A stretch of DNA of 34,692 nt from Wenyingzhuangia aestuarii. Lineage in GTDB: Bacteria > Bacteroidota > Bacteroidia > Flavobacteriales > Flavobacteriaceae. The translations under genes and the position numbers were made by a program. The DNA lies in assembly GCF_011927765.1 (NCBI RefSeq), contig NZ_JAATJG010000001.1, positions 1 to 34,692 of the forward strand. The letters run 5' to 3'. Within the stretch, counting starts at the first letter, position 1; every line of letters begins with the position of its first letter. Positions 5,363-25,131 of this stretch are shown in pieces. The notes beneath the pieces are model-generated. The model was given only the letters and a program-made list of their open reading frames with translations, was not told where the DNA came from and did no database searches.

Positions 5363-5411
5363 AGCTCTACGCAAAATATAGGGGTATATTTAACGCGTAG
5401 GGCTTTTTTTT
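5363..5411 (+). terminator. long two-tier hairpin with T-run on the plus strand
   Basis: AGCTCTACGC (5363-5372) pairs with GCGTAGGGCT (5395-5404), with one G-T pair. Inside it AAATATA (5374-5380) pairs with TATATTT (5385-5391) around a GGGG tetraloop. Eight Ts follow on the plus strand, up to and overlapping the stop codon of the convergent TonB receptor gene. On the minus strand no T-run follows. It therefore looks like the terminator of a plus-strand transcript, although no ORF lies upstream on that strand. Confidence 0.6.
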
Positions 5412-7986
5412 AAAAGTTAATTCTAAAAACAGCATTAGGAACAAAGCCCATAGATAATCTGTCTGTTTCTACTAAAACTTCTTTTTCTTCTCTACTAGAT
5501 CCTTTTCCTATAATTACAGTTTCTATTTCGTAATCTCGGTTTAAAATATTTTTCTTGTTTATAAGATTCTGGAATGTAATTCCAAAAACTCCTTTTATTT
5601 TAGGAGTCCTGTTTACATAAAATTTATAGGATGTAGAAAAATCTAACCTTTGATAATTAGGTAATCTTTCTGTATTTAAATTTTCAAAATCTACTCTAAG
5701 TCCTTCTTGATTGTTTTTTTCAACAGCTGTTTTAATAGTATAAGGTATTCCAGATCTAAATCTCCATCCTAAAGAAAATTCCAACTGTTTGTAACTATAA
5801 TTATGAGACCAAATAAGATTGTGTGGTGCATCATAAGAACCATCAAACTTTTTAGAGTTGTTGAGTTTATTAAATAAGTATTGACTTTTAGACAAAGAAT
5901 AACTAACCCAAGTATTGTAATTATTCCATGTTCTTTTTACCAAAACATCCATTCCTAATACAGTATTGCTTCCACTAAAATATTTTCTAGATTTTATATT
6001 TTCATCAATCAATAACAAAACTCCATTTACCTTTTTTTTATAAAAATCTAAATCTATAGTCCAATTATTTTTTTGATAATCTGTTCCAATACTTGTTTGA
6101 ATACTTTGTAATACTGGAAATTCTCCTCCATCAGAAAGAGCCCAAAAACGATCGAATAATCCACCTAAACCATCACTTCTAAAATCTACAACCTGACTCA
6201 TAGATTGATGCTTTAACTCAGTAGAAAATTTAAAACTTAAGGCTTTATTTACTTTGTAGTTTATATTTAGCCTAGGCTCCAAATAATGATCATCAATTTT
6301 ATCAAAACTTTGAAATCTTAAACCTAGATTAACTAACCATTGTTTGCTATTTCTGAATTGATATTCTGTAAAAAGTGCATAGTTTTTAGTTTGTCCCTGA
6401 ATAATATCATTTATTCCATTAGTAATATCAGGAGTATTTCTGTAAAAATTATACCCCACATTGTAATTACTAAACTGATAGCCTAATTGCCATTTATTAT
6501 GTTTTTTGGTTTCTTTTTCAAAAATATACTCTAAACTGTTTTCTATAACTTGATTATCTTTTCCAAAAGAAGCTACTTCTTCATTTCCATTTCTTAAAGT
6601 TGTAGTTCTAGATCCTTGATAATTTTTATTAAAATTGGTTGAACTGTAAGCTATTTGATGACTTCCATTTTTTGACAAACCGTATTTCCAATCGGCTCTA
6701 AAACCTGTGTTTTTTACACGAATATCATCTTGAAAACCTTCTCTAATTAAAGTAGTAGTTCCCGTAAAATTTAAATCGTTTACATTGTATAAATAACTAA
6801 AAGACAATTTGTTTTTTGCATTTGGCTGAACAATTATTTTAGTATGATAGTCTTCATAATAAAAATCGTTTTTAGCATTTATAACTTTTAAATTATTGTC
6901 TTCTAATCCATCAGATATTCTGCTGTTTTGAAAAACAACCTCTGAATATTTTTGAAAAGTGATACTATTTACTAAATCTGTAATAGATCTTCTGGCAGAA
7001 AAAACCAATCCTACTTTATTTGTAAACAATGGTGTTTTTATATAAAAATCTGCATGGGTAAAAGTACTTCCAAAACCTATGTTTGTTTTTTTAGGAACCG
7101 TAGTATCTATACTAATATCTAACACGCCACCAACGTTGTTTCCGTATTTTGCATGAGTTCCCGATCTGTATAGTTTTACATTGTTAGTGATGTAGGGATT
7201 AAAAGCAGATATCAATCCAAAAAAGTGAGAGAAATGATACATTTTCATTCCATCAAAAACCACTAAATTTTGATCAGGAGTACTTCCTCTAATATGAATT
7301 CCCGAAGCTGTTTCGTCAGGACTTTGTACTCCTGGAATTAATTGTAAAGTTTGTAAAACATCTGGTTCTATCACCCCGGGTAAAATCCCTAACTTTTTAG
7401 GATCTAAAACAATACTTCCATCCTTTTTTTTAGAAAATCCTCTGGTTAAATAATCGGTAATTACTATTTCGTTTAAATAATTAACTTCATCATTTAAAGA
7501 AATAGCAATGCAATCTTTACCAAAAGAAGCTATAGCAACTGTTTTAGATTGATATTCTAAAGAACTTATGGTAATAAAACCATCAGACAAAACGTCTTTT
7601 AACTCAAAATAGCCTTGTGAATTTGTATACACCGTTTTGCCATTACAAGAAACGGTTACAAACGATAATTTTTGATTGTTTTTTGCACTAACAATAGTTC
7701 CACAAACAGAAGTTTTAGAGCTTGTTGGTAATCTAAGAATGTAATTTTTAGCATCAATTTTCTCAAAAATCAATTGCGTTTGATTAGAAATAGAAACCAA
7801 TTGATATTCTAGAATTTCAGATTCATCAACTAAAATAGATGTGAATTTTTGTATTTGATTTTCATCATAAGAAAACGCTATTTGGTATTTATTAGACAGC
7901 GTGTTTAAAACCTTTTTTAAACTTGTTTTTTCTTGAGAAAAAACAATAGCTGTTACTAAGTAAAAGAACCAAAAGAGTTTATTCAT
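5410..7986 (-). CDS. TonB-dependent outer-membrane receptor with N-terminal signalling (STN) domain
   Basis: Outer-membrane beta-barrel transporter of 858 residues with a signal peptide ending near IVFSQ. Residues about 20-70 form a secretin/TonB short N-terminal domain, starting LKKVLNTLSNKYQIAFSYDE, of the kind that contacts FecR in the periplasm. A carboxypeptidase-regulatory-like fold follows (CGTIVSAKN to FITISSLEYQ). Then comes the plug, with PDVLQTLQLIPGVQSPDE and GIHIRGSTPDQNLVVFDG, and a long aromatic-rich barrel. It starts one base after the fecR stop, so the two are co-transcribed and probably translationally coupled. No SusD partner is present, which points away from a classical polysaccharide-utilisation locus. 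The substrate cannot be read from the sequence; no haem or siderophore enzymes lie nearby. Confidence 0.93.
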   Translation of the reverse strand: MNKLFWFFYLVTAIVFSQEKTSLKKVLNTLSNKYQIAFSYDENQIQKFTSILVDESEILEYQLVSISNQTQLIFEKIDAKNYILRLPTSSKTSVCGTIVSAKNNQKLSFVTVSCNGKTVYTNSQGYFELKDVLSDGFITISSLEYQSKTVAIASFGKDCIAISLNDEVNYLNEIVITDYLTRGFSKKKDGSIVLDPKKLGILPGVIEPDVLQTLQLIPGVQSPDETASGIHIRGSTPDQNLVVFDGMKMYHFSHFFGLISAFNPYITNNVKLYRSGTHAKYGNNVGGVLDISIDTTVPKKTNIGFGSTFTHADFYIKTPLFTNKVGLVFSARRSITDLVNSITFQKYSEVVFQNSRISDGLEDNNLKVINAKNDFYYEDYHTKIIVQPNAKNKLSFSYLYNVNDLNFTGTTTLIREGFQDDIRVKNTGFRADWKYGLSKNGSHQIAYSSTNFNKNYQGSRTTTLRNGNEEVASFGKDNQVIENSLEYIFEKETKKHNKWQLGYQFSNYNVGYNFYRNTPDITNGINDIIQGQTKNYALFTEYQFRNSKQWLVNLGLRFQSFDKIDDHYLEPRLNINYKVNKALSFKFSTELKHQSMSQVVDFRSDGLGGLFDRFWALSDGGEFPVLQSIQTSIGTDYQKNNWTIDLDFYKKKVNGVLLLIDENIKSRKYFSGSNTVLGMDVLVKRTWNNYNTWVSYSLSKSQYLFNKLNNSKKFDGSYDAPHNLIWSHNYSYKQLEFSLGWRFRSGIPYTIKTAVEKNNQEGLRVDFENLNTERLPNYQRLDFSTSYKFYVNRTPKIKGVFGITFQNLINKKNILNRDYEIETVIIGKGSSREEKEVLVETDRLSMGFVPNAVFRINF

Positions 7987-7987
7987 T

Positions 7988-8896
7988 TTATTGGCTAATA
8001 GTTACTACTTTATCTTTAGTTGTGTAGGTAATATTCATAGACTTACAAATTACCTTTAAAGCTTTATCTAAGTTATTTTTTACAAGTACTCCTGAATATT
8101 TTTGTACTAAATCTACATCTTTATTTATAATACGAACCTTATAAACATTTTCTAAATCTTTAAAAACAACACGTAAAGGCACTCCGTTGTATTGATAATT
8201 ATGTAACAACCAATTAGGTTCTGACACCGAAATATTATAAGATTTTTTTTGATTTTTTAAAAACTGAACTCCTTTTCCGGGAGTTAAAATAAATTCAAAC
8301 TTATTGTTTTTAACGTTTACTTTTCCTTCGTAACATTCTACAGCCAAATAATTATCTACTGTTTGAACATTAAATTGCGTACCTAAAACAGTAACCGTTC
8401 CCTCTTCTGTAGCCACAGAAAAAGTAGATCCTTTTTTAACTTTAAAATATCCTTCTCCCTCTAAGTCTAAAGTTCTATTCCCTTTATCCCATTGTTTTTT
8501 ATTAAACGACACAGAAGAATTTCCGTTTAATTGCACTTCAGATCCATCAGGTAAAACATAAGCTAATTGTTGTCCTACAGAAGATGTAAAACTAGTCTCT
8601 TGATTAAAGAAAAATGTTAATCCTACCAAAACTAAAACAGCAGCTGCAGTAGCATATACCCAAGTAGGAATAAACTTACGAACCTTTGTTTTACGGTCTT
8701 TTAGTTTGCTTTGTATTTGCTCTAAAACTTTTTCTTGATTAAAAGATGGAATTGTAAACTCCGTACTTTTATCGGCTATTTTTTGATACAATGCATACTC
8801 TTCAGACTTTTTAAAATCTGCCAACTCAGCATCAGACAACTCATTATTAAGCCATCTTGCTAAGTAAGTATCATCGTTTTTATAATCTTGTTTCAT
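7988..8896 (-). CDS. FecR-type anti-sigma factor
   Basis: Inner-membrane protein of 302 residues that normally holds the cognate ECF sigma factor and relays the receptor signal to it. The cytoplasmic N-terminus (YLARWLNNELSDAELADFK) is the usual sigma-binding region. A single membrane segment, VYATAAAVLVLVGLTFFF, lies near residues 83-100. The periplasmic FecR domain follows (QLAYVLPDGSEVQLNGNSSV, DLEGEGYFKVKKG, VLGTQFNV), and a C-terminal DUF4974-like part ends the protein. It sits between the sigma gene and the TonB receptor, and has its own 84-base upstream gap carrying the motif GGTAGGGTATTT. This suggests a separate, probably sigma-dependent promoter for fecR and the receptor. Confidence 0.95.
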   Translation of the reverse strand: MKQDYKNDDTYLARWLNNELSDAELADFKKSEEYALYQKIADKSTEFTIPSFNQEKVLEQIQSKLKDRKTKVRKFIPTWVYATAAAVLVLVGLTFFFNQETSFTSSVGQQLAYVLPDGSEVQLNGNSSVSFNKKQWDKGNRTLDLEGEGYFKVKKGSTFSVATEEGTVTVLGTQFNVQTVDNYLAVECYEGKVNVKNNKFEFILTPGKGVQFLKNQKKSYNISVSEPNWLLHNYQYNGVPLRVVFKDLENVYKVRIINKDVDLVQKYSGVLVKNNLDKALKVICKSMNITYTTKDKVVTISQ

Positions 8897-8934
8897 TAGT
8901 TTGGTCTATTTCTATCTATAACCATTAACTATTT

Positions 8935-8946
8935 AAATACCCTACC
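8935..8946 (-). promoter_or_regulatory. shared motif GGTAGGGTATTT upstream of the fecR gene
   Basis: The 12-mer lies 38 bases before the fecR ATG. The same 12-mer occurs at 9585-9596 upstream of the divergent lipoprotein gene, also followed by an AT-rich AATA stretch. Two exact copies in front of two genes beside an ECF sigma gene suggest the promoter element this sigma recognises, or an operator. Confidence 0.55.
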
Positions 8947-8980
8947 TTAAATAGCTTGTAAATTTTTGATTTGTAGAATT

Positions 8981-9496
8981 TTATATTTTTTTATCTATAC
9001 TTTGTCTTAGCTTTAACAAAGCACCATGCATTCTTTTTTCTACAGCTTTTACAGATATCTCTAACATCTCAGCAATTTCTCTATATTTTTTTCCTTCTAT
9101 TCTATTCAATAAAAACACTTCTCTTTCTCCAGCTGTTAAATCATCTAACGCTTTTTGAAGCTTTACCATAAATTCTTTTTCTTCTAAAATAAAATCAGGA
9201 GATTCAATATTACTATCTTCTTTTCCAGAATGTTGCTGGTATTTTAACTTTACTCTAAAGTGTGCAACTTCATTTAAAAATTGATTATTAGCAATGGTAT
9301 ATAAATAAGACTTAGCTTTTTCAAAAATAACTTTGGCACAATTATCCCAAAGTTTAATAAAGGCTTCTTGAACTAAATCTTCTGCTCTATCTTGATCTCC
9401 ACATTTATAATACATAAAGCTATAAAGAGATTTGCTATATTTTTTATAGAGAGCTTCATATATTTTAGCTTCACAAACGGAAGGTTCTTTTAACAT
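8981..9496 (-). CDS. ECF (FecI/RpoE-type) RNA polymerase sigma factor
   Basis: A 171-residue sigma-70 family member with only regions 2 and 4. Region 2 is visible as YSKSLYSFMYYKCGDQ then AEDLVQEAFIKLWDN, the core-binding and -10-melting segment. Region 4 shows AGEREVFLLNRIEGKKYREI and an HTH with ISVKAVEKRMHGALLKLRQ for -35 contact. It directs RNA polymerase to genes for cell-surface signalling and is kept inactive by the FecR product downstream. Upstream on its own strand only a weak TATATTTA box is seen, so basal expression is probably low. Its probable targets are the fecR-receptor pair and the divergent lipoprotein gene. Confidence 0.95.
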   Translation of the reverse strand: MLKEPSVCEAKIYEALYKKYSKSLYSFMYYKCGDQDRAEDLVQEAFIKLWDNCAKVIFEKAKSYLYTIANNQFLNEVAHFRVKLKYQQHSGKEDSNIESPDFILEEKEFMVKLQKALDDLTAGEREVFLLNRIEGKKYREIAEMLEISVKAVEKRMHGALLKLRQSIDKKI

Positions 9497-11232: not shown

Positions 11233-12240
11233 TTATTCATTTTTCATGTTTTTTAGTAGATATATTAAAGAAGAATACTCTCCTGTTTGTTTTGCTTTTT
11301 TATTTGACCTATATCCGTTAATAATTGCTTTGATAAAATTCTTTTTACCTGTTTTGTATTGTTCACTTAATAAAGAAACATAAAAAGCATCAAACTTCAT
11401 CGGAAGTGTTTTTATTACTTTTATTAATTCTGTTGCAAACAATCTATTCATTGCAGTTTGAGAAAAATGCCACAAATGTCTTGGGGTATCATAAGCAGCC
11501 CAATATTCTTTATAAAGCTCTGCATCGTAACTTTTATAATTTGGAACCGCAATTACCAAAACTCCATCTGGTTTTAACAATTGTTTTAATCTATAAATAT
11601 ACATATCCAAATCGTGAACATGCTCTAAAGAATGCCACATGGTAATTACATCAAATAAATATGGATTGCTTTCTTTCTCTACATTTTCATCTTCAAATTT
11701 TAAAACTTCTTTTTCTACATTTTTAGTTTCGTGATCTGAATGATGATATAACTTTGTTTGTCTATAACTTTGTTTGTAATCTAAATCTTTTTCAGTTGCT
11801 GCAAAATCATCATCAAAAAAAGCATGAATATTTGAATAGATATAAGTACGATCTTCTAATTTTTCAAAAGCTTTTTCCCTTGCTTTTTCACTAGGTTCTA
11901 TTCCAGTTACCTTCCATCCTGCTTGCTGACATATTTTTAAAAAATCTCCAGTTCCACAACCAATATCTAAAACCTTTTTTTCTTCTACAGAAAAAGAATT
12001 TAAAAGCTCTAACTTTTTTTGCAAAGCATATTTCTTAACCTTATTGTATACAATTTCCGTAATTGTTTTATTACTATCGGTATGAGAAATATAATTTTCT
12101 GTTTCGTAATACTTTCCTAAATTTTCTTTTTTAGGTCTAGGATTAGTAATTAGTAAATCGATACGATCATCTAATAACAATTCAAAATTTTCTTTTGAAA
12201 CTGAAAAATCTTTGGTTTTTATATATGTTTTTAAAGCCAT
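11233..12240 (-). CDS. class I SAM-dependent methyltransferase with a charged insertion
   Basis: A 335-residue Rossmann-fold methyltransferase. Motif I is VLDIGCGTGDFL, the acidic loop is VTGIEPSEKA, and the post-II segment DVITMWHSLEHVHDLD is typical of the Methyltransf_23 group. Later, PRHLWHFSQTAMNRLF marks a family common in Bacteroidota that often acts in cell-envelope glycan or lipid biosynthesis; the substrate is unknown. Between the motif II region and DVITMWHSLEHV lies about 50 charged residues (DDDFAATEKDLDYKQS and onward, ending NVEKESNPYLF). They appear to be an insertion relative to the compact fold. Two TAnnTTTG boxes lie upstream at 12306-12313 and 12324-12331. Confidence 0.85.
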   Translation of the reverse strand: MALKTYIKTKDFSVSKENFELLLDDRIDLLITNPRPKKENLGKYYETENYISHTDSNKTITEIVYNKVKKYALQKKLELLNSFSVEEKKVLDIGCGTGDFLKICQQAGWKVTGIEPSEKAREKAFEKLEDRTYIYSNIHAFFDDDFAATEKDLDYKQSYRQTKLYHHSDHETKNVEKEVLKFEDENVEKESNPYLFDVITMWHSLEHVHDLDMYIYRLKQLLKPDGVLVIAVPNYKSYDAELYKEYWAAYDTPRHLWHFSQTAMNRLFATELIKVIKTLPMKFDAFYVSLLSEQYKTGKKNFIKAIINGYRSNKKAKQTGEYSSLIYLLKNMKNE

Positions 12241-12454: not shown

Positions 12455-12468
12455 GTTCCACGTGGAAC
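12455..12468. other. parS site 1 (ParB-binding centromere-like palindrome)
   Basis: GTTCCACGTGGAAC is a perfect 14-base palindrome matching the widely conserved chromosomal parS core, consensus GTTTCACGTGAAAC with C/G variants at position 4/11. It sits between the mnmG stop and its terminator. Confidence 0.85.
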
Positions 12469-12476
12469 GCTATTTT

Positions 12477-14354
12477 TTATCTTCCCATATAAACCAACAA
12501 AACAGAAACATCTGATGGTGAAACACCACTAATTCTACTCGCTTGTGATATTGTTACAGGCTGAATTTTAGTTAATTTTTGCTGCGCTTCTGTAGACAAA
12601 GATTTTACTTTATAATAATCAAAACTCTTAGGAATAGATATATTTTCTAAACGTTGTAGTTTATCTGCATTATTCTTTTCTTTCTCTATATAACCCGCAT
12701 ATTTTACTTTAACCTCTGCTTGTTCTAAAACTTCAGAATCCATATCGTGCTCTTTAATAAAATCAGCAACTCCAGGGAACCTTACAACATCATTAAAATC
12801 TATTTGAGGTCTAGATGCTACCTTATACATTTTAACAGATTGGTTAATTACGGCAGATCCTTTTTCTTCAAGAATAGGATTTACATCTCCTGGTTTAATA
12901 CTTGTTTGTTCTAAAAACTCAACCAACAAATCAGATTTCCTAACCTTTTCTTTTACTCTTTCTAAACGTTCATCAGAAGCTAAACCAATTGCATTAGATA
13001 ATGGAGTTAATCTAATATCTGCATTATCTTGACGCAATAGAGTTCTATATTCAGCTCTAGAAGTAAACATTCTATAAGGTTCTTCTGTTCCTTTTGTAAT
13101 TAAATCATCTATTAAAACTCCAATATAAGCTTCGTCTCTTTTTAAAATAAAAGGAGGTCTTTTTTGAACTTTTAAAGCTGCATTTATACCAGCCATTAAT
13201 CCTTGTGCACCAGCTTCTTCATAACCTGTAGTACCATTAATTTGTCCAGCAAAAAACAAATTCTTAACCAATTTAGTTTCTAAAGAATGTGTTAATTGTG
13301 TTGGTGGAAAATAATCATACTCAATTGCATATCCATAACGCAAGAATTTTACATTTTCAAACCCAGCAACTTTACGCAAAGCTTTATCTTGAACATCTTC
13401 TGGTAAAGAAGTAGAAAAACCATTTACATAAATTTCTACTGTATTCCAACCTTCCGGTTCTACAAAAATTTGATGTTTATCCTTAGTTGCAAAACGATCA
13501 ATTTTATCTTCAATAGAAGGACAATAACGTGGACCTGTAGATTGAATTCTACCATTAAACATTGGAGACCTATCAAAACCACTACGCAACAAATCGTGCA
13601 CTTCCTGAGAAGTGTAACTCATATAACAAGAACGTTGTTCTACTAAAGGTTTTGTAGTAGGCAAATAAGAAAATTTCTCAGGATTCTCATCACCTGGTTG
13701 TTCTATCATTTTAGAAAAATCTAAAGATCTAGCATCAACTCTTGGAGGAGTTCCCGTCTTCATTCGTCCTGCTTCAAAACCAACTTTCACTAAATCTTCA
13801 GTAATTCCAGTAGAAGCACTTTCACCAGACCTACCTCCACCAAAAGATTTTTCTCCAATATGAATTAACCCATTTAAAAAAGTTCCTGCAGTAATAATTA
13901 CAGATTCAGCTTTTATAACAAATCCTAATCCTGTTTTTACTCCTTTAATTTCTCTATCTTCAATAACCAAACCTTTAATCATGTCCTGATAAAAATCAAG
14001 ATTATCGGTATGTTCCAACATCACTCTCCACTCTTCTGCAAAACGCATTCTGTCAGACTGAGCTCTTGGACTCCACATAGCAGGTCCTTTAGATTTATTT
14101 AACATTTTAAATTGAATAGCAGTTTTATCTGTAACAATTCCACTATACCCTCCTAATGCATCAATTTCTCTTACTATCTGACCTTTTGCAATTCCTCCCA
14201 TAGCAGGATTACAACTCATTTGAGCAATGTTTTGTAAACTCATGGTTACTAATAAAGTTTTAGCACCCATATTTGCAGCAGCAGCAGCAGCTTCAGAACC
14301 TGCATGACCCCCTCCTACAACAATTACATCATATGTATCTGTAAATAAACTCAT
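12477..14354 (-). CDS. mnmG: tRNA uridine-5-carboxymethylaminomethyl modification enzyme MnmG
   Basis: FAD-dependent enzyme that, with the GTPase MnmE, adds the carboxymethylaminomethyl group to U34 of tRNAs reading split codon boxes. The 625 residues match the family length. The N-terminal dinucleotide fold shows VIVVGGGHAGSEAA. Conserved segments follow: SCNPAMGGIAKGQIVREIDALGG cut into recognisable blocks, RTGTPPR-like MKTGTPPRVDA, and AGQINGTTGYEEAGAQG. The C-terminal helical domain ends ASRISGVSPSDVSVLL. It is preceded by ybeY on the same strand with a 67-base gap, and the gene is bracketed by two parS sites. In many bacteria this gene (gidA) lies near the origin, as it does here. Confidence 0.98.
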   Translation of the reverse strand: MSLFTDTYDVIVVGGGHAGSEAAAAAANMGAKTLLVTMSLQNIAQMSCNPAMGGIAKGQIVREIDALGGYSGIVTDKTAIQFKMLNKSKGPAMWSPRAQSDRMRFAEEWRVMLEHTDNLDFYQDMIKGLVIEDREIKGVKTGLGFVIKAESVIITAGTFLNGLIHIGEKSFGGGRSGESASTGITEDLVKVGFEAGRMKTGTPPRVDARSLDFSKMIEQPGDENPEKFSYLPTTKPLVEQRSCYMSYTSQEVHDLLRSGFDRSPMFNGRIQSTGPRYCPSIEDKIDRFATKDKHQIFVEPEGWNTVEIYVNGFSTSLPEDVQDKALRKVAGFENVKFLRYGYAIEYDYFPPTQLTHSLETKLVKNLFFAGQINGTTGYEEAGAQGLMAGINAALKVQKRPPFILKRDEAYIGVLIDDLITKGTEEPYRMFTSRAEYRTLLRQDNADIRLTPLSNAIGLASDERLERVKEKVRKSDLLVEFLEQTSIKPGDVNPILEEKGSAVINQSVKMYKVASRPQIDFNDVVRFPGVADFIKEHDMDSEVLEQAEVKVKYAGYIEKEKNNADKLQRLENISIPKSFDYYKVKSLSTEAQQKLTKIQPVTISQASRISGVSPSDVSVLLVYMGR

Positions 14355-14408
14355 ATATTTATTTTCAATTTAAAAGTTAAATTAAAATTCAACCTTATTT
14401 TATCGTTT

Positions 14409-14422
14409 GTTCCACGTGGAAC
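14409..14422. other. parS site 2
   Basis: A second perfect GTTCCACGTGGAAC palindrome, in the short ybeY-mnmG gap. Its last base is also the last base of the ybeY stop codon. Confidence 0.85.
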
Positions 14423-14835
14423 TATTTAGCAATTTTTGCTATATAATAATCTTCTTTGCTTCGCATTACTCTTACATCATCTGGTTGTTTGTCTTTGTAA
14501 CCACAATAATGTAAAATACCATGAATCATAACACGATTCATTTCATCTCTAAAATCAATATTCAAATCTTTAGCATTATCAAACACACGTTCTACCGATA
14601 TAAAAATATCACCAGAAATTAATTTTCCCATCGTATAATCAAAGCTAATAATATCTGTTAAAGTATCATGATCTAAAAATTCTACATTTAATTTATGTAG
14701 ATATTCATCATCACAAAAGATATAATTGATATCTCCTTCTTCAAAACCCTCTTCTTGTAAAGCATTCTGAATCCATTCCACATGATGATTTGGATTAATT
14801 AATTCAAAATCAGCTTCATAAGTAAAATCTATCAT
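14422..14835 (-). CDS. ybeY: endoribonuclease YbeY (rRNA maturation factor)
   Basis: Zinc-dependent endoribonuclease of 137 residues involved in 16S rRNA 3'-end processing and ribosome quality control. The metal site is visible as MIHGILHYCGYKDKQPDD: His-Gly-x-Leu-His, with Lys-Asp in place of the usual Asp-His of proteobacterial enzymes. LNVEFLDHDTLTDIISFDY is the conserved segment preceding it. A longer frame opens at 14943, but the start MIDFTYEADF at 14835 is chosen because it gives the normal length and follows a TACCTTTG -7 box at 14853-14860. The extra upstream 36 residues would lie across that promoter. mnmG follows. Confidence 0.93.
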   Translation of the reverse strand: MIDFTYEADFELINPNHHVEWIQNALQEEGFEEGDINYIFCDDEYLHKLNVEFLDHDTLTDIISFDYTMGKLISGDIFISVERVFDNAKDLNIDFRDEMNRVMIHGILHYCGYKDKQPDDVRVMRSKEDYYIAKIAK

Positions 14836-14852
14836 AGTAAAAATTTGATTTG

Positions 14853-14860
14853 CAAAGGTA
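14853..14860 (-). promoter_or_regulatory. ybeY -7 promoter box
   Basis: TACCTTTG fits TAnnTTTG and lies 17 bases before ATG 14835, which decides the start of ybeY. Confidence 0.6.
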
Positions 14861-14928
14861 ATAAATAACTTGGTAGATTGAAAGACAATAAAATAAAGTA
14901 TATCAATCATATTAATGCGTAGATAAAG

Positions 14929-14936
14929 TATATTTG
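14929..14936 (+). promoter_or_regulatory. gltX -7 promoter box
   Basis: TATATTTG fits TAnnTTTG exactly and lies 40 bases before ATG 14977. It faces away from the ybeY promoter; the two boxes are about 70 bases apart. Confidence 0.6.
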
Positions 14937-14976
14937 CAAGCAATAAAAACGAATATAAAATTCTAAAAAAGTAACC

Positions 14977-16491
14977 ATGGAAAATGTACGTGTAAGATTT
15001 GCACCAAGCCCTACAGGTCCTTTACATATTGGAGGAGTAAGAACAGCATTGTTTAACTACTTATTTGCTAAAAAGCACAACGGAACCTTTGTATTAAGAA
15101 TTGAAGACACAGACCAAACTAGGTATGTTGCCAATGCAGAAAGCTATATTACTGAATCTTTAGAATGGTGTGGAATTCCTTTTGATGAGGGTCCAGGAAA
15201 AAACGAAAAATTTGGTCCTTACCGTCAATCAGAAAGAAAGGAAATATATAAAAAATATGCTGATGCCTTGGTTGCAAGTAATCAGGCTTATTATGCTTTT
15301 GATACTTCTGAAGAGTTAGATATATTACGTAACCAAGCAGAAGCTAACAAAACAGTATTTGTTTACAACAATGTTTCACGTGAAACCTTAAACAATTCCA
15401 TCAACTTAACAAAACAAGAAGTTGAGGCTAAATTGGCTGCTGGAGAAAAATATGTGATTCGTTTTAAAACTCCAAAAGATCAAAAATTAATTTTAGACGA
15501 TATGATTCGTGGTGAAATTATTATTGATACGAATACCTTAGATGATAAAATTTTATTTAAATCTGACGGTATGCCAACTTATCATTTAGCAAATATTGTA
15601 GATGATCATTTGATGGAAATTAGTCATGTAATACGTGGAGAAGAATGGTTACCTTCTTTACCATTACACAGTTTATTATACGAAGCTTTTGGATGGATTG
15701 CACCAAAATTTGCACACTTACCGTTAATTTTAAAACCCGTAGGTAAAGGAAAACTAAGCAAACGTGATGGTGATAAATTAGGATTTCCTGTATTTCCATT
15801 AAATTATACAAATCAAGAAACTAGTGAAGTTTCTAAAGGATATAAAGAAGAAGGGTATTTTAACGATGCCTTTATAAACATGCTTGCTTTGTTAGGATGG
15901 AACCCTGGAACAGAACAAGAAATATTTTCTTTAGAAGAATTATGTAAAGAATTTAGTATTGAACGTGTTTCTAAATCGGGAGCTAAATTTAGCCCAGATA
16001 AAACAAAATGGTTCAATCAACAATACATGATGTCTACGGATATCTCTAAAATTGTGGCAGAATTTAAAGCTTTAAATAGTGAAGCTGTTACAGGTTTTGA
16101 TGATGTTTATATTACTAAGGTGATTGAAGCAGTTAGAGAACGTGCAATTTTTTCTAAAGATTTATGGGAATTGTCAGATTACTATTTTGCCAACCCTACT
16201 TCTTATGATCAAAAAGCAGCTAAAAAACAATGGAAAGAAACCACTAGTCCATTAATAAAAGAAGTTGCCAATGTAATTAAAAATATAGAAGATTTTAATA
16301 GTGCAACCATAGAAGAAAAAGTAAAGGAATACATTACTAGTAACGAATTAGGTTTTGGAAAAGTAATGCAACCATTAAGATTAAGTATTGTGGGTGCCAT
16401 GAAAGGTCCTCACCTATTTGATATTATTGAAATGATTGGTAAAGAAAATACATTAGAAAGAATAGAAAATTCAATTAAAAAATTAGGTTAA
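14977..16491 (+). CDS. gltX: glutamyl-tRNA synthetase
   Basis: Class I aminoacyl-tRNA synthetase that charges tRNA-Glu with glutamate in the cytosol. The 504 residues match the family. The HIGH box reads FAPSPTGPLHIGG near residues 8-20, and the KMSKS loop appears as GKLSKRDGDKLG. WNPGTEQEIF and the helical anticodon-binding half follow. The gene has its own promoter box and terminator and looks intact. A perfect parS palindrome is embedded in codons for NVSRET in its first third, at 15373-15386. Confidence 0.98.
   Translation: MENVRVRFAPSPTGPLHIGGVRTALFNYLFAKKHNGTFVLRIEDTDQTRYVANAESYITESLEWCGIPFDEGPGKNEKFGPYRQSERKEIYKKYADALVASNQAYYAFDTSEELDILRNQAEANKTVFVYNNVSRETLNNSINLTKQEVEAKLAAGEKYVIRFKTPKDQKLILDDMIRGEIIIDTNTLDDKILFKSDGMPTYHLANIVDDHLMEISHVIRGEEWLPSLPLHSLLYEAFGWIAPKFAHLPLILKPVGKGKLSKRDGDKLGFPVFPLNYTNQETSEVSKGYKEEGYFNDAFINMLALLGWNPGTEQEIFSLEELCKEFSIERVSKSGAKFSPDKTKWFNQQYMMSTDISKIVAEFKALNSEAVTGFDDVYITKVIEAVRERAIFSKDLWELSDYYFANPTSYDQKAAKKQWKETTSPLIKEVANVIKNIEDFNSATIEEKVKEYITSNELGFGKVMQPLRLSIVGAMKGPHLFDIIEMIGKENTLERIENSIKKLG
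15373..15386. other. parS site 3, inside gltX
   Basis: GTTTCACGTGAAAC is the exact universal parS consensus core, here within the coding sequence of gltX. It differs from sites 1 and 2 at two symmetric positions, which keeps the palindrome. Confidence 0.85.
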
Positions 16492-24491: not shown

Positions 24492-25131
24492 CATCATAAC
24501 TTATGTTAGTTGTAATAATATCAAAATTAATTCCTGAGCTTTATACTAATGTTACTCTTTTCTATAATTTCATTTTTTAAATAGGTTATTGTTATCAACA
24601 CTTATATAATATCTAATTTCTTCTTTTTTAAAATTTATAAAACAAATTATAGGGTATTATTAGGTGTTCATTTATACAATAACTCTACTTAATTTAATTT
24701 TGAGGTAACATTAAGTTTACTTTATTAACAAGTTATTAGATTTATAAACTCTTTGTTTTAAATAGATTAATAGTAGTTATTCACAGTTGTTAATAACCGT
24801 TTTTTTACTTTTTCTAAGTATAAAAAAATGATTGTTGATTATTCATAAACCGTGAATAAATTGTTAATAACCGTTCAAAACTTTTTAGTAAATAAATTTG
24901 CTTTGTATTAGGTGTGTCGCGTATTGTTTTTTAAGCTTAGAATACAAAATTTACTTTCGTTTTTTTAACCACAGTTTATCAACAATTTGCTGTTTTTTGT
25001 AATCTGTTGATTTTAAAGGTTTTTAGCAATAGTTATTATTTATGGTGTTAATAACTGTTAATAATGTGAATTTGTTAAAAAGTTATTCACTTTATTGATG
25101 ATATTGTATTTTTATAAAACTTAACTATTTG

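What the first reader, a model, noticed from the sequence alone, without database searches (positions are those of the whole stretch)
12455..15386. Three perfect parS palindromes within 3 kb
GTTCCACGTGGAAC occurs at 12455 and 14409 and GTTTCACGTGAAAC at 15373; all are perfect 14-base palindromes of the ParB-binding core. A given 14-mer is expected about once in hundreds of Mb by chance, so three in 3 kb cannot be random. They lie 9-12 kb from the candidate oriC, the typical spacing for chromosome centromeres. parA and parB are not in the window.
Basis: partly seen in the sequence, partly recalled or inferred. Interest (0 to 1): 0.85.

Follow-up and report, generated by a model that had tools for sequence, protein, structure and literature searches.

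The report
Bacterial centromere sites flanking mnmG
The three short palindromes are the docking sites at which this marine bacterium's ParB protein most likely grips newly copied chromosomes; the sites are an ordinary kind, but two of them hug one tRNA-modification gene, and such site pairs recur beside that gene in most of the related genomes sampled.

Summary
The three 14-bp palindromes are the only exact GTTYCACGTGRAAC sites in the 3.53-Mb genome (about 0.02 expected). The genome has one ParB match, with parS-type DNA-contact residues, in a parA-parB locus on another contig. The sites lie 9-12 kb from a DnaA-box cluster; in a complete congener the equivalent sites are near the GC-skew switch.

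In 66 of 80 named mnmG loci an exact site lies within 200 bp of both gene ends. In a 148-genome phylum sample the commonest count is two (101 of 148); of 93 genomes examined outside the order that have exact sites, 78 have every one within 3 kb of mnmG, 9 some, 6 none. The third site lies inside gltX, is found in all seven genus genomes, and is invariant there although outgroup proteins differ. No canonical SMC was detected. Ordinary components; the location rule was not found in the papers searched.

The parts
12455..12468 (.). parS-1, GTTCCACGTGGAAC, 8 bp beyond the mnmG stop codon and before its terminator
   Evidence: identical in 7 of 7 genus genomes with variable flanks; an exact site downstream of mnmG within 250 bp in 69 of 80 named loci
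14409..14422 (.). parS-2, GTTCCACGTGGAAC, between ybeY and mnmG; its last base is shared with the ybeY TAG stop
   Evidence: identical in 7 of 7 genus genomes; an exact site upstream of mnmG within 250 bp in 76 of 80 named loci
15373..15386 (.). parS-3, GTTTCACGTGAAAC, inside gltX, from codon 133 into codon 137 (V-S-R-E-T)
   Evidence: 14 of 14 bases invariant in 7 of 7 genus genomes, one of 7 invariant 14-nt windows of 1499 in gltX; none of the seven outgroup proteins aligned reads VSRET there
12477..14354 (-). mnmG (gidA), tRNA uridine-5-carboxymethylaminomethyl(34) synthesis enzyme; bracketed by parS-1 and parS-2
   Evidence: TIGR00136, 844.6 bits against cut-off 524.85
14422..14943 (-). 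ybeY, rRNA maturation RNase, directly upstream of mnmG (start codon as listed by the ORF finder, not checked)
   Evidence: TIGR00043, 99.8 bits against cut-off 45
14977..16491 (+). gltX, glutamate-tRNA ligase, carries parS-3
   Evidence: TIGR00464, 486.9 bits against cut-off 289.95
11233..12240 (-). class I methyltransferase, usual downstream neighbour of mnmG; in the relative G029, where mnmG is elsewhere, parS sites lie around its homologue
   Evidence: PF13489; a relative found in 75 of 80 named loci; 46% identity in L026
12408..12441 (-). terminator-like hairpin after mnmG, just past parS-1
   Evidence: a hairpin of differing sequence followed by T-rich bases lies after this site in the 7 genus genomes (alignment, read by eye)
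24592..25064 (.). candidate oriC: 8 DnaA-box-like 9-mers in an A+T-rich gap before rpiB
   Evidence: a like cluster of 8 in complete congener G004 at 3,276,112

Best explanation
They are the parS sites of the chromosomal ParABS system of a Wenyingzhuangia species (Flavobacteriaceae). Most likely mechanism: ParB, a CTP-binding clamp, loads at the three palindromes, slides into the mnmG-gltX region and forms the partition complex about 10 kb from oriC; ParA, made with ParB from a locus on another contig (about 635 kb away in a complete congener), pulls the two copies of this complex apart soon after replication starts. No canonical SMC was detected, so the usual second role of parS (loading SMC-ScpAB) is probably absent or done by another protein. 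Shown: sites, uniqueness, conservation, a ParB with parS-type contact residues, nearness to an origin-like box cluster and to the GC-skew switch of a congener. Inferred: ParB binding, clamp sliding, ParA transport. The wider pattern, most often two sites beside mnmG in Bacteroidota, I read as an ancestral origin-proximal position that was kept and locally rearranged after parAB came to lie elsewhere.
For: 3 of 3 exact genome copies lie in 2.9 kb. One ParB, 161.6 bits against cut-off 58.45, adjacent to a ParA-superfamily ORF. Aligned to Noc, its residues at the four specificity positions are R, Y, K, G; the RXXG type is parS-specific and R173 and G201 are said to be absolutely conserved in extant ParB (PMC7383237, passages). 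GERR and ENIQR stretches are in the translation (their role as CTP motifs is recalled). Footprint: 14 of 14 bases kept in 7 of 7 genus genomes at both mnmG sites amid varying flanks. Of 317 exact sites near mnmG, 234 have T before and 242 A after, as in TGTTTCACGTGAAACA. ParB is present in 57 of 60 relatives, own included, and in 8 of 8 phylum genomes that lack an exact site; 6 of the 7 of these with fetched mnmG have two 1-mismatch sites beside mnmG. In complete congener G004 GC skew is positive in 12 of 12 samples over 0-1.9 Mb, negative in 7 of 7 over 2.06-3.10 Mb, and weakly positive at 3.269-3.289 Mb; parS lies at 3.266-3.269 Mb.
Against: No binding data. Two ParB-negative genomes of the 60 (G009, G059) carry sites, though at 80 and 83% completeness. 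G041, G046 and G058 have ParB but near mnmG only a 1-mismatch site each. G149 has ParB and no site within 1 mismatch in the fetched mnmG stretch. GC-skew sampling of G053 and G029 was noisy and did not locate the origin clearly, and a DnaA-box cluster of 6 or more was found within about 10 kb of mnmG in only 4 of 64 named loci, so nearness of mnmG and parS to oriC is shown for this genus, not for the phylum. Ancestral inheritance alone does not explain why the sites change side of mnmG between families yet mostly stay close to it.
Confidence: 0.93

Rival explanations
1. The palindromes are RNA hairpins (leader or 3' end elements) that regulate mnmG, not DNA centromere sites.
For: They hug the mnmG start and stop codons (median distance of upstream sites 25 bp and of downstream sites 10 bp in the named loci), and GUUCC-ACGU-GGAAC can fold as a small hairpin; the terminator scan flags one. 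Fully symmetric forms exceed independence (103 CG and 106 TA against 77.6 and 80.6 expected), which fits an RNA stem as well as a DNA palindrome.
Against: In mnmG-sense orientation the form that breaks the RNA stem (C4-A11) is not rarer than the wobble form (T4-G11): 61 against 47 of 317 sites, upstream 30 against 30, downstream 31 against 17. The would-be loop ACGT is part of the searched core and of the parS consensus. One window site lies inside gltX on the opposite gene strand. In two f19 genomes a site lies inside thrC, not at mnmG.
Confidence: 0.03
2. Binding sites for another regulator that recognises CACGTG palindromes and acts on mnmG or tRNA-modification genes; the likeness to parS is incidental.
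For: Persistent tie to mnmG: sites with up to one mismatch within 250 bp of mnmG in 25 of 30 families sampled outside the order.
Against: Sequence including flanks equals the published parS consensus; ParB has parS-type residues; genomes rarely have further exact copies that could serve a regulon (148 genomes, commonest count two); in G029 the three exact sites lie by the former neighbour of mnmG while mnmG is 280 kb away.
Confidence: 0.03
3. Relic of an ancestral gidA-par locus with no present function.
For: parAB now lies elsewhere (about 635 kb away in G004 by the coordinates).
Against: Perfect conservation amid varying flanks; a site invariant inside gltX where outgroup proteins differ; 1-mismatch pairs beside mnmG in 6 of 7 genomes without exact sites.
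Confidence: 0.02

Closest known systems
Chromosomal ParABS / parS of Caulobacter crescentus and Bacillus subtilis
   Same: Same 14-16 bp palindrome, origin-proximal cluster, ParB of the same family with R and G at the discriminating positions
   Different: parAB is not next to mnmG or to parS; no canonical SMC detected; sites at mnmG ends, one in gltX. That gidA-gidB-parA-parB is a common cluster in other phyla is recalled, not tested.
Bacteroides caecimuris parS-defined origin domain (PMC10197239, passages seen)
   Same: Bacteroidota; parS near ori; no condensin homologue found by those authors in it; ori not always at dnaA
   Different: That work maps chromosome folding; the passages shown do not mention mnmG or a two-site rule.
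Noc / NBS nucleoid occlusion
   Same: ParB paralogue; the window genome's ParB scores 233.5 bits with TIGR04285
   Different: Below that model's cut-off of 315; R and G instead of Q and R at the key positions; the sites match parS.

Membership tests
Chromosomal ParABS centromere (parS) | Exact palindromic core GTTYCACGTGRAAC, rare and clustered | tested here: met
   3 of 3 genome copies within 2.9 kb
Chromosomal ParABS centromere (parS) | ParB family protein in the same genome | tested here: met
   One TIGR00180 match, 161.6 bits against 58.45
Chromosomal ParABS centromere (parS) | ParB residues of parS-binding type (R173, G201 in Caulobacter numbering) | tested here: met
   R and G in the alignment to Noc; rule from PMC7383237, passages
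Chromosomal ParABS centromere (parS) | ParA ATPase encoded with ParB | tested here: met
   ParA-superfamily ORF directly before parB; it is below the curated cut-offs of every model listed, which are for plasmid, MinD and other subfamilies
Chromosomal ParABS centromere (parS) | Origin-proximal position | tested here: met
   9-12 kb from a DnaA-box cluster; near the GC-skew switch in complete congener G004
Chromosomal ParABS centromere (parS) | ParB binds and spreads; loss impairs segregation | not testable with these tools
   needs ChIP-seq and mutants
parS as SMC-ScpAB loading site | SMC present | tested here: not met
   TIGR02168 over cut-off in 0 of 21 genomes, in 10 of 14 control genomes; ScpA/ScpB and other condensins not searched
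Noc nucleoid occlusion system | Noc over curated cut-off with Q and R at the key positions | tested here: not met
   233.5 bits against cut-off 315; R and G found

The most novel reading that the evidence does not exclude
In Bacteroidota the chromosome's centromere is functionally tied to the mnmG gene: selection keeps a minimum of two ParB loading sites, re-made on whichever side of mnmG but mostly within tens of bp of its ends, for example because ParB clamps and mnmG transcription influence each other or because the mnmG-sized gap sets a useful spacing or a protected landing zone; this works without SMC.
Probability: 0.2. Interest if true: 0.8.

Novelty: new member of a known kind. Interest (0 to 1): 0.5.

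Why it matters
[quoted passage not shown] A phylum in which the commonest count is two, at one gene, with parAB elsewhere and no canonical SMC in the 21 genomes checked, is a clean natural case for asking what the minimum centromere is and what fixes its position. It might also mark the origin region in Bacteroidota, where dnaA can lie elsewhere; that use still needs the origin mapped outside this genus.

Tried and rejected
RNA-hairpin reading: tested by the two asymmetric site forms and not supported. Further hidden parS in the genome: the 2-mismatch search is below its control. Noc reading: below cut-off and wrong residues. SMC loading: no canonical SMC. No Rfam family at gathering score and no tRNA or tmRNA gene in the window. 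Natural experiment G029 (parS and mnmG apart): GC-skew sampling too noisy to say which lies at the origin; G053 only weakly consistent with an origin near parS. DnaA-box clusters within about 10 kb of mnmG: 4 of 64 named loci of at least 18 kb have 6 or more boxes in 500 bp (0 in shuffles), on either side of mnmG; so either oriC is farther away in most or my box pattern, recalled from E. coli and loosened, is too narrow. A recurrent 1-mismatch CTTCCACGTGAAAC in 10 of 80 loci encodes part of a conserved LPRETAGY motif. Literature: searches for parS with Bacteroidetes, Flavobacterium, gidA, mnmG, Bacteroides and related names; two searches found 724 and 185 papers of which 20 each were listed. 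I saw titles and abstract starts, and passages of PMC10197239, PMC13342612, PMC7383237 and PMC7333895; none of this mentions parS at mnmG in Bacteroidota. Livny et al. 2007, the main parS survey, is not held and may have recorded such sites.
Full report
WHAT WAS CHECKED. In the whole genome (G000, 3,526,759 bp, 43 contigs) GTTYCACGTGRAAC occurs three times, all in the window; the reversed control occurs 0 times. With up to two mismatches there are 14 sites (3 exact, 11 with two mismatches) against 24 for the control. At 29-31% G+C 0.016-0.021 exact sites are expected per genome.

WHICH ORGANISM. The closest named record to the window's MnmG is Wenyingzhuangia gilva, 92% identity; the genus assignment rests on that, and the tool notes that records of the window's own genome may be left out. 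One of the unnamed same-genus relatives, G003, has a contig of the same length as that record and is probably the same genome.

ANATOMY. parS-1 (12455-12468) lies 8 bp past the mnmG stop codon, just before a terminator-like hairpin. parS-2 (14409-14422) lies between ybeY and mnmG. parS-3 (15373-15386) lies inside gltX. Gene names come from NCBIfam and Pfam. Eight DnaA-box-like 9-mers sit at 24592-25064 before rpiB (0 of 200 block shuffles reach eight). The box pattern is mine, loosened from the recalled E. coli consensus. dnaA itself is on contig 10.

PARTNERS. The only TIGR00180 match in the genome is on contig 4. There a ParA-superfamily ORF and parB are adjacent and followed, after one small ORF, by dapB and a signal peptidase. 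In the Noc alignment the ParB has R, Y, K, G at the positions that PMC7383237 (passages) numbers 158, 164, 169, 186 in Noc and 173, 179, 184, 201 in Caulobacter ParB. That paper states that R173 and G201 are conserved in all extant ParB orthologues and that Noc has Q and R. TIGR02168 (SMC) is over its cut-off in 0 of 21 genomes, own included, and in 10 of 14 control genomes; PMC10197239 (passages) likewise reports no condensin homologue in its two Bacteroidetes.

ORIGIN. In the complete congener G004 (3,427,057 bp), twenty samples of 20 kb show positive GC skew in 12 of 12 from 0 to 1.9 Mb, negative in 7 of 7 from 2.06 to 3.10 Mb, and a weak positive value (0.036) at 3.269-3.289 Mb. The parS sites are at 3,265,651-3,268,583 and an eight-box cluster begins at 3,276,112. 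ParB is at 473,398, about 635 kb away around the circle. The same sampling in G053 was weakly consistent and in G029 inconclusive. Among 64 named loci of at least 18 kb only 4 show a box cluster of six or more. Nearness to oriC is therefore shown for this genus and open for the rest.

CONSERVATION IN THE GENUS. All 6 same-genus genomes and the own genome have exactly three sites. Both mnmG-flanking sites are 14 of 14 identical in the 7 genomes while the surrounding bases vary strongly. In gltX the 14 bases are invariant in 7 of 7; only 7 of 1499 14-nt windows are, five of them at the start codon. For comparison, of 350 gltX positions with the same amino acid in all 7, 125 also have the same codon in all 7 (one search gave 359 because it counted gap-only columns). 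None of seven outgroup proteins reads V-S-R-E-T there (five read H-N-R-E-K or H-N-R-Q-K), so the site seems to have been gained in this genus with amino-acid changes. This is a small, chosen outgroup set.

BEYOND THE GENUS. Of 60 relatives (own included) 55 have exact sites and 57 have ParB. The five without are G011 (mnmG not found either), G041, G046, G058 and G051. Of 26 relatives whose mnmG flanks I read, 14 have an exact site close to both ends of mnmG, 8 on one side only, 3 only a 1-mismatch site, 1 none (G051, a 0.3-Mb genome without ParB). Of 80 named loci, the best tblastn relatives of the window MnmG and mostly Flavobacteriaceae, 66 have exact sites within 200 bp of both ends, 10 upstream only, 3 downstream only, 1 none (L191, labelled Capnocytophaga, with no site within one mismatch in its 7.9 and 10 kb flanks). 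With one mismatch and 250 bp, 79 of 80 have at least two sites and 74 have them on both sides; control 0 of 80. These loci are related and not independent.

PHYLUM. In 148 genomes drawn from the phylum (own included), 140 have exact sites; counts: 0 in 8, 1 in 15, 2 in 101, 3 in 9, 4 in 7, more in 8. mnmG with up to 3 kb on each side was fetched for 100 of the 131 genomes outside the order; left out were the 30 genomes of family f29 and G173, whose mnmG was not found over the cut-off. Of the 100, 93 have exact sites in the genome; in 78 all of them lie within 3 kb of mnmG, in 9 some, in 6 none (families f19, f30, f44). tblastn (E up to 1e-5) with the window genome's ParA and ParB found neither in any of the 100 stretches; strongly diverged copies could be missed. 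With one mismatch and 250 bp, 87 of 100 have at least one site and 70 at least two; control 0 of 100; 25 of 30 families have sites. Arrangements differ: two upstream in 30, two downstream in 17, one on each side in 14. The association is thus not one frozen layout. Other phyla were not sampled, so I cannot say how special this is to Bacteroidota.

EXCEPTIONS. All 8 genomes of the 148 without an exact site have ParB. Of the 7 with fetched mnmG, 6 have two 1-mismatch sites beside it and G149 has none within one mismatch. Of the 15 genomes with one exact site I looked at 7: five (G068, G077, G093, G104, G184) have a 1-mismatch partner near mnmG, two (G076, G131) do not. In the two f19 genomes a site lies inside thrC; in the three f30 genomes the pair lies between an N-acetylmuramic acid 6-phosphate etherase gene and an ORF with an mfd-like stretch. 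In G029 three sites lie around a homologue of the window's methyltransferase, the usual neighbour of mnmG, while mnmG is 280 kb away. This argues that the sites do not need mnmG.

RNA OR DNA. In mnmG-sense orientation, of 317 exact sites in 160 of 180 loci, the form that would break an RNA stem occurs 61 times and the wobble form 47 times; fully symmetric forms are in excess. T precedes in 234 and A follows in 242, as in the 16-bp parS consensus quoted in PMC10197239.

JUDGEMENT. The finding is a ParABS centromere of a known kind by every test that sequence allows. The location rule was not met in the literature listings and passages I saw, but the main survey (Livny et al. 2007) could not be read. 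I think inheritance of an origin-proximal place with local turnover is the likelier reason; a functional tie to mnmG is open and testable.

Noticed in passing
L144, L145, L149, L150 (Flavobacterium loci): Tandem parS arrays upstream of mnmG, with 4 to 7 exact copies at roughly 35-90 bp spacing (one wider gap in L145), in place of the usual single upstream site.
   Followed up: no
L169, L187, L145; single copies in Tenacibaculum L135 and L136: 1-mismatch variant GTTCCACATGGAAC near mnmG, several copies in a row in the first three loci; possibly a ParB or parS variant.
   Followed up: no
L153 and L155: Records labelled Limnohabitans sp. and Chitinophaga pinensis (MAGs) carry an mnmG 74 and 76% identical to the window's and a Flavobacterium-like parS layout; the labels look wrong.
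   Followed up: no
10 of 80 named loci, e.g. L161:17310: CTTCCACGTGAAAC (one mismatch to parS) recurs 4.5-8.4 kb downstream of mnmG; it encodes part of a conserved LPRETAGY protein motif, so probably coding coincidence.
   Followed up: yes
window 5410-7986 with 7988-9496: An 858-aa ORF without NCBIfam match next to an anti-sigma (FecR-like) and an ECF sigma factor gene.
   Followed up: no
G000 contig 10, about 55769-56032 (not in window): A 1497-aa open frame with a weak match to the middle of the SMC profile (E 3.9e-6) in a genome without canonical SMC; frames of 1487-1491 aa also match weakly in G002 and G005.
   Followed up: no
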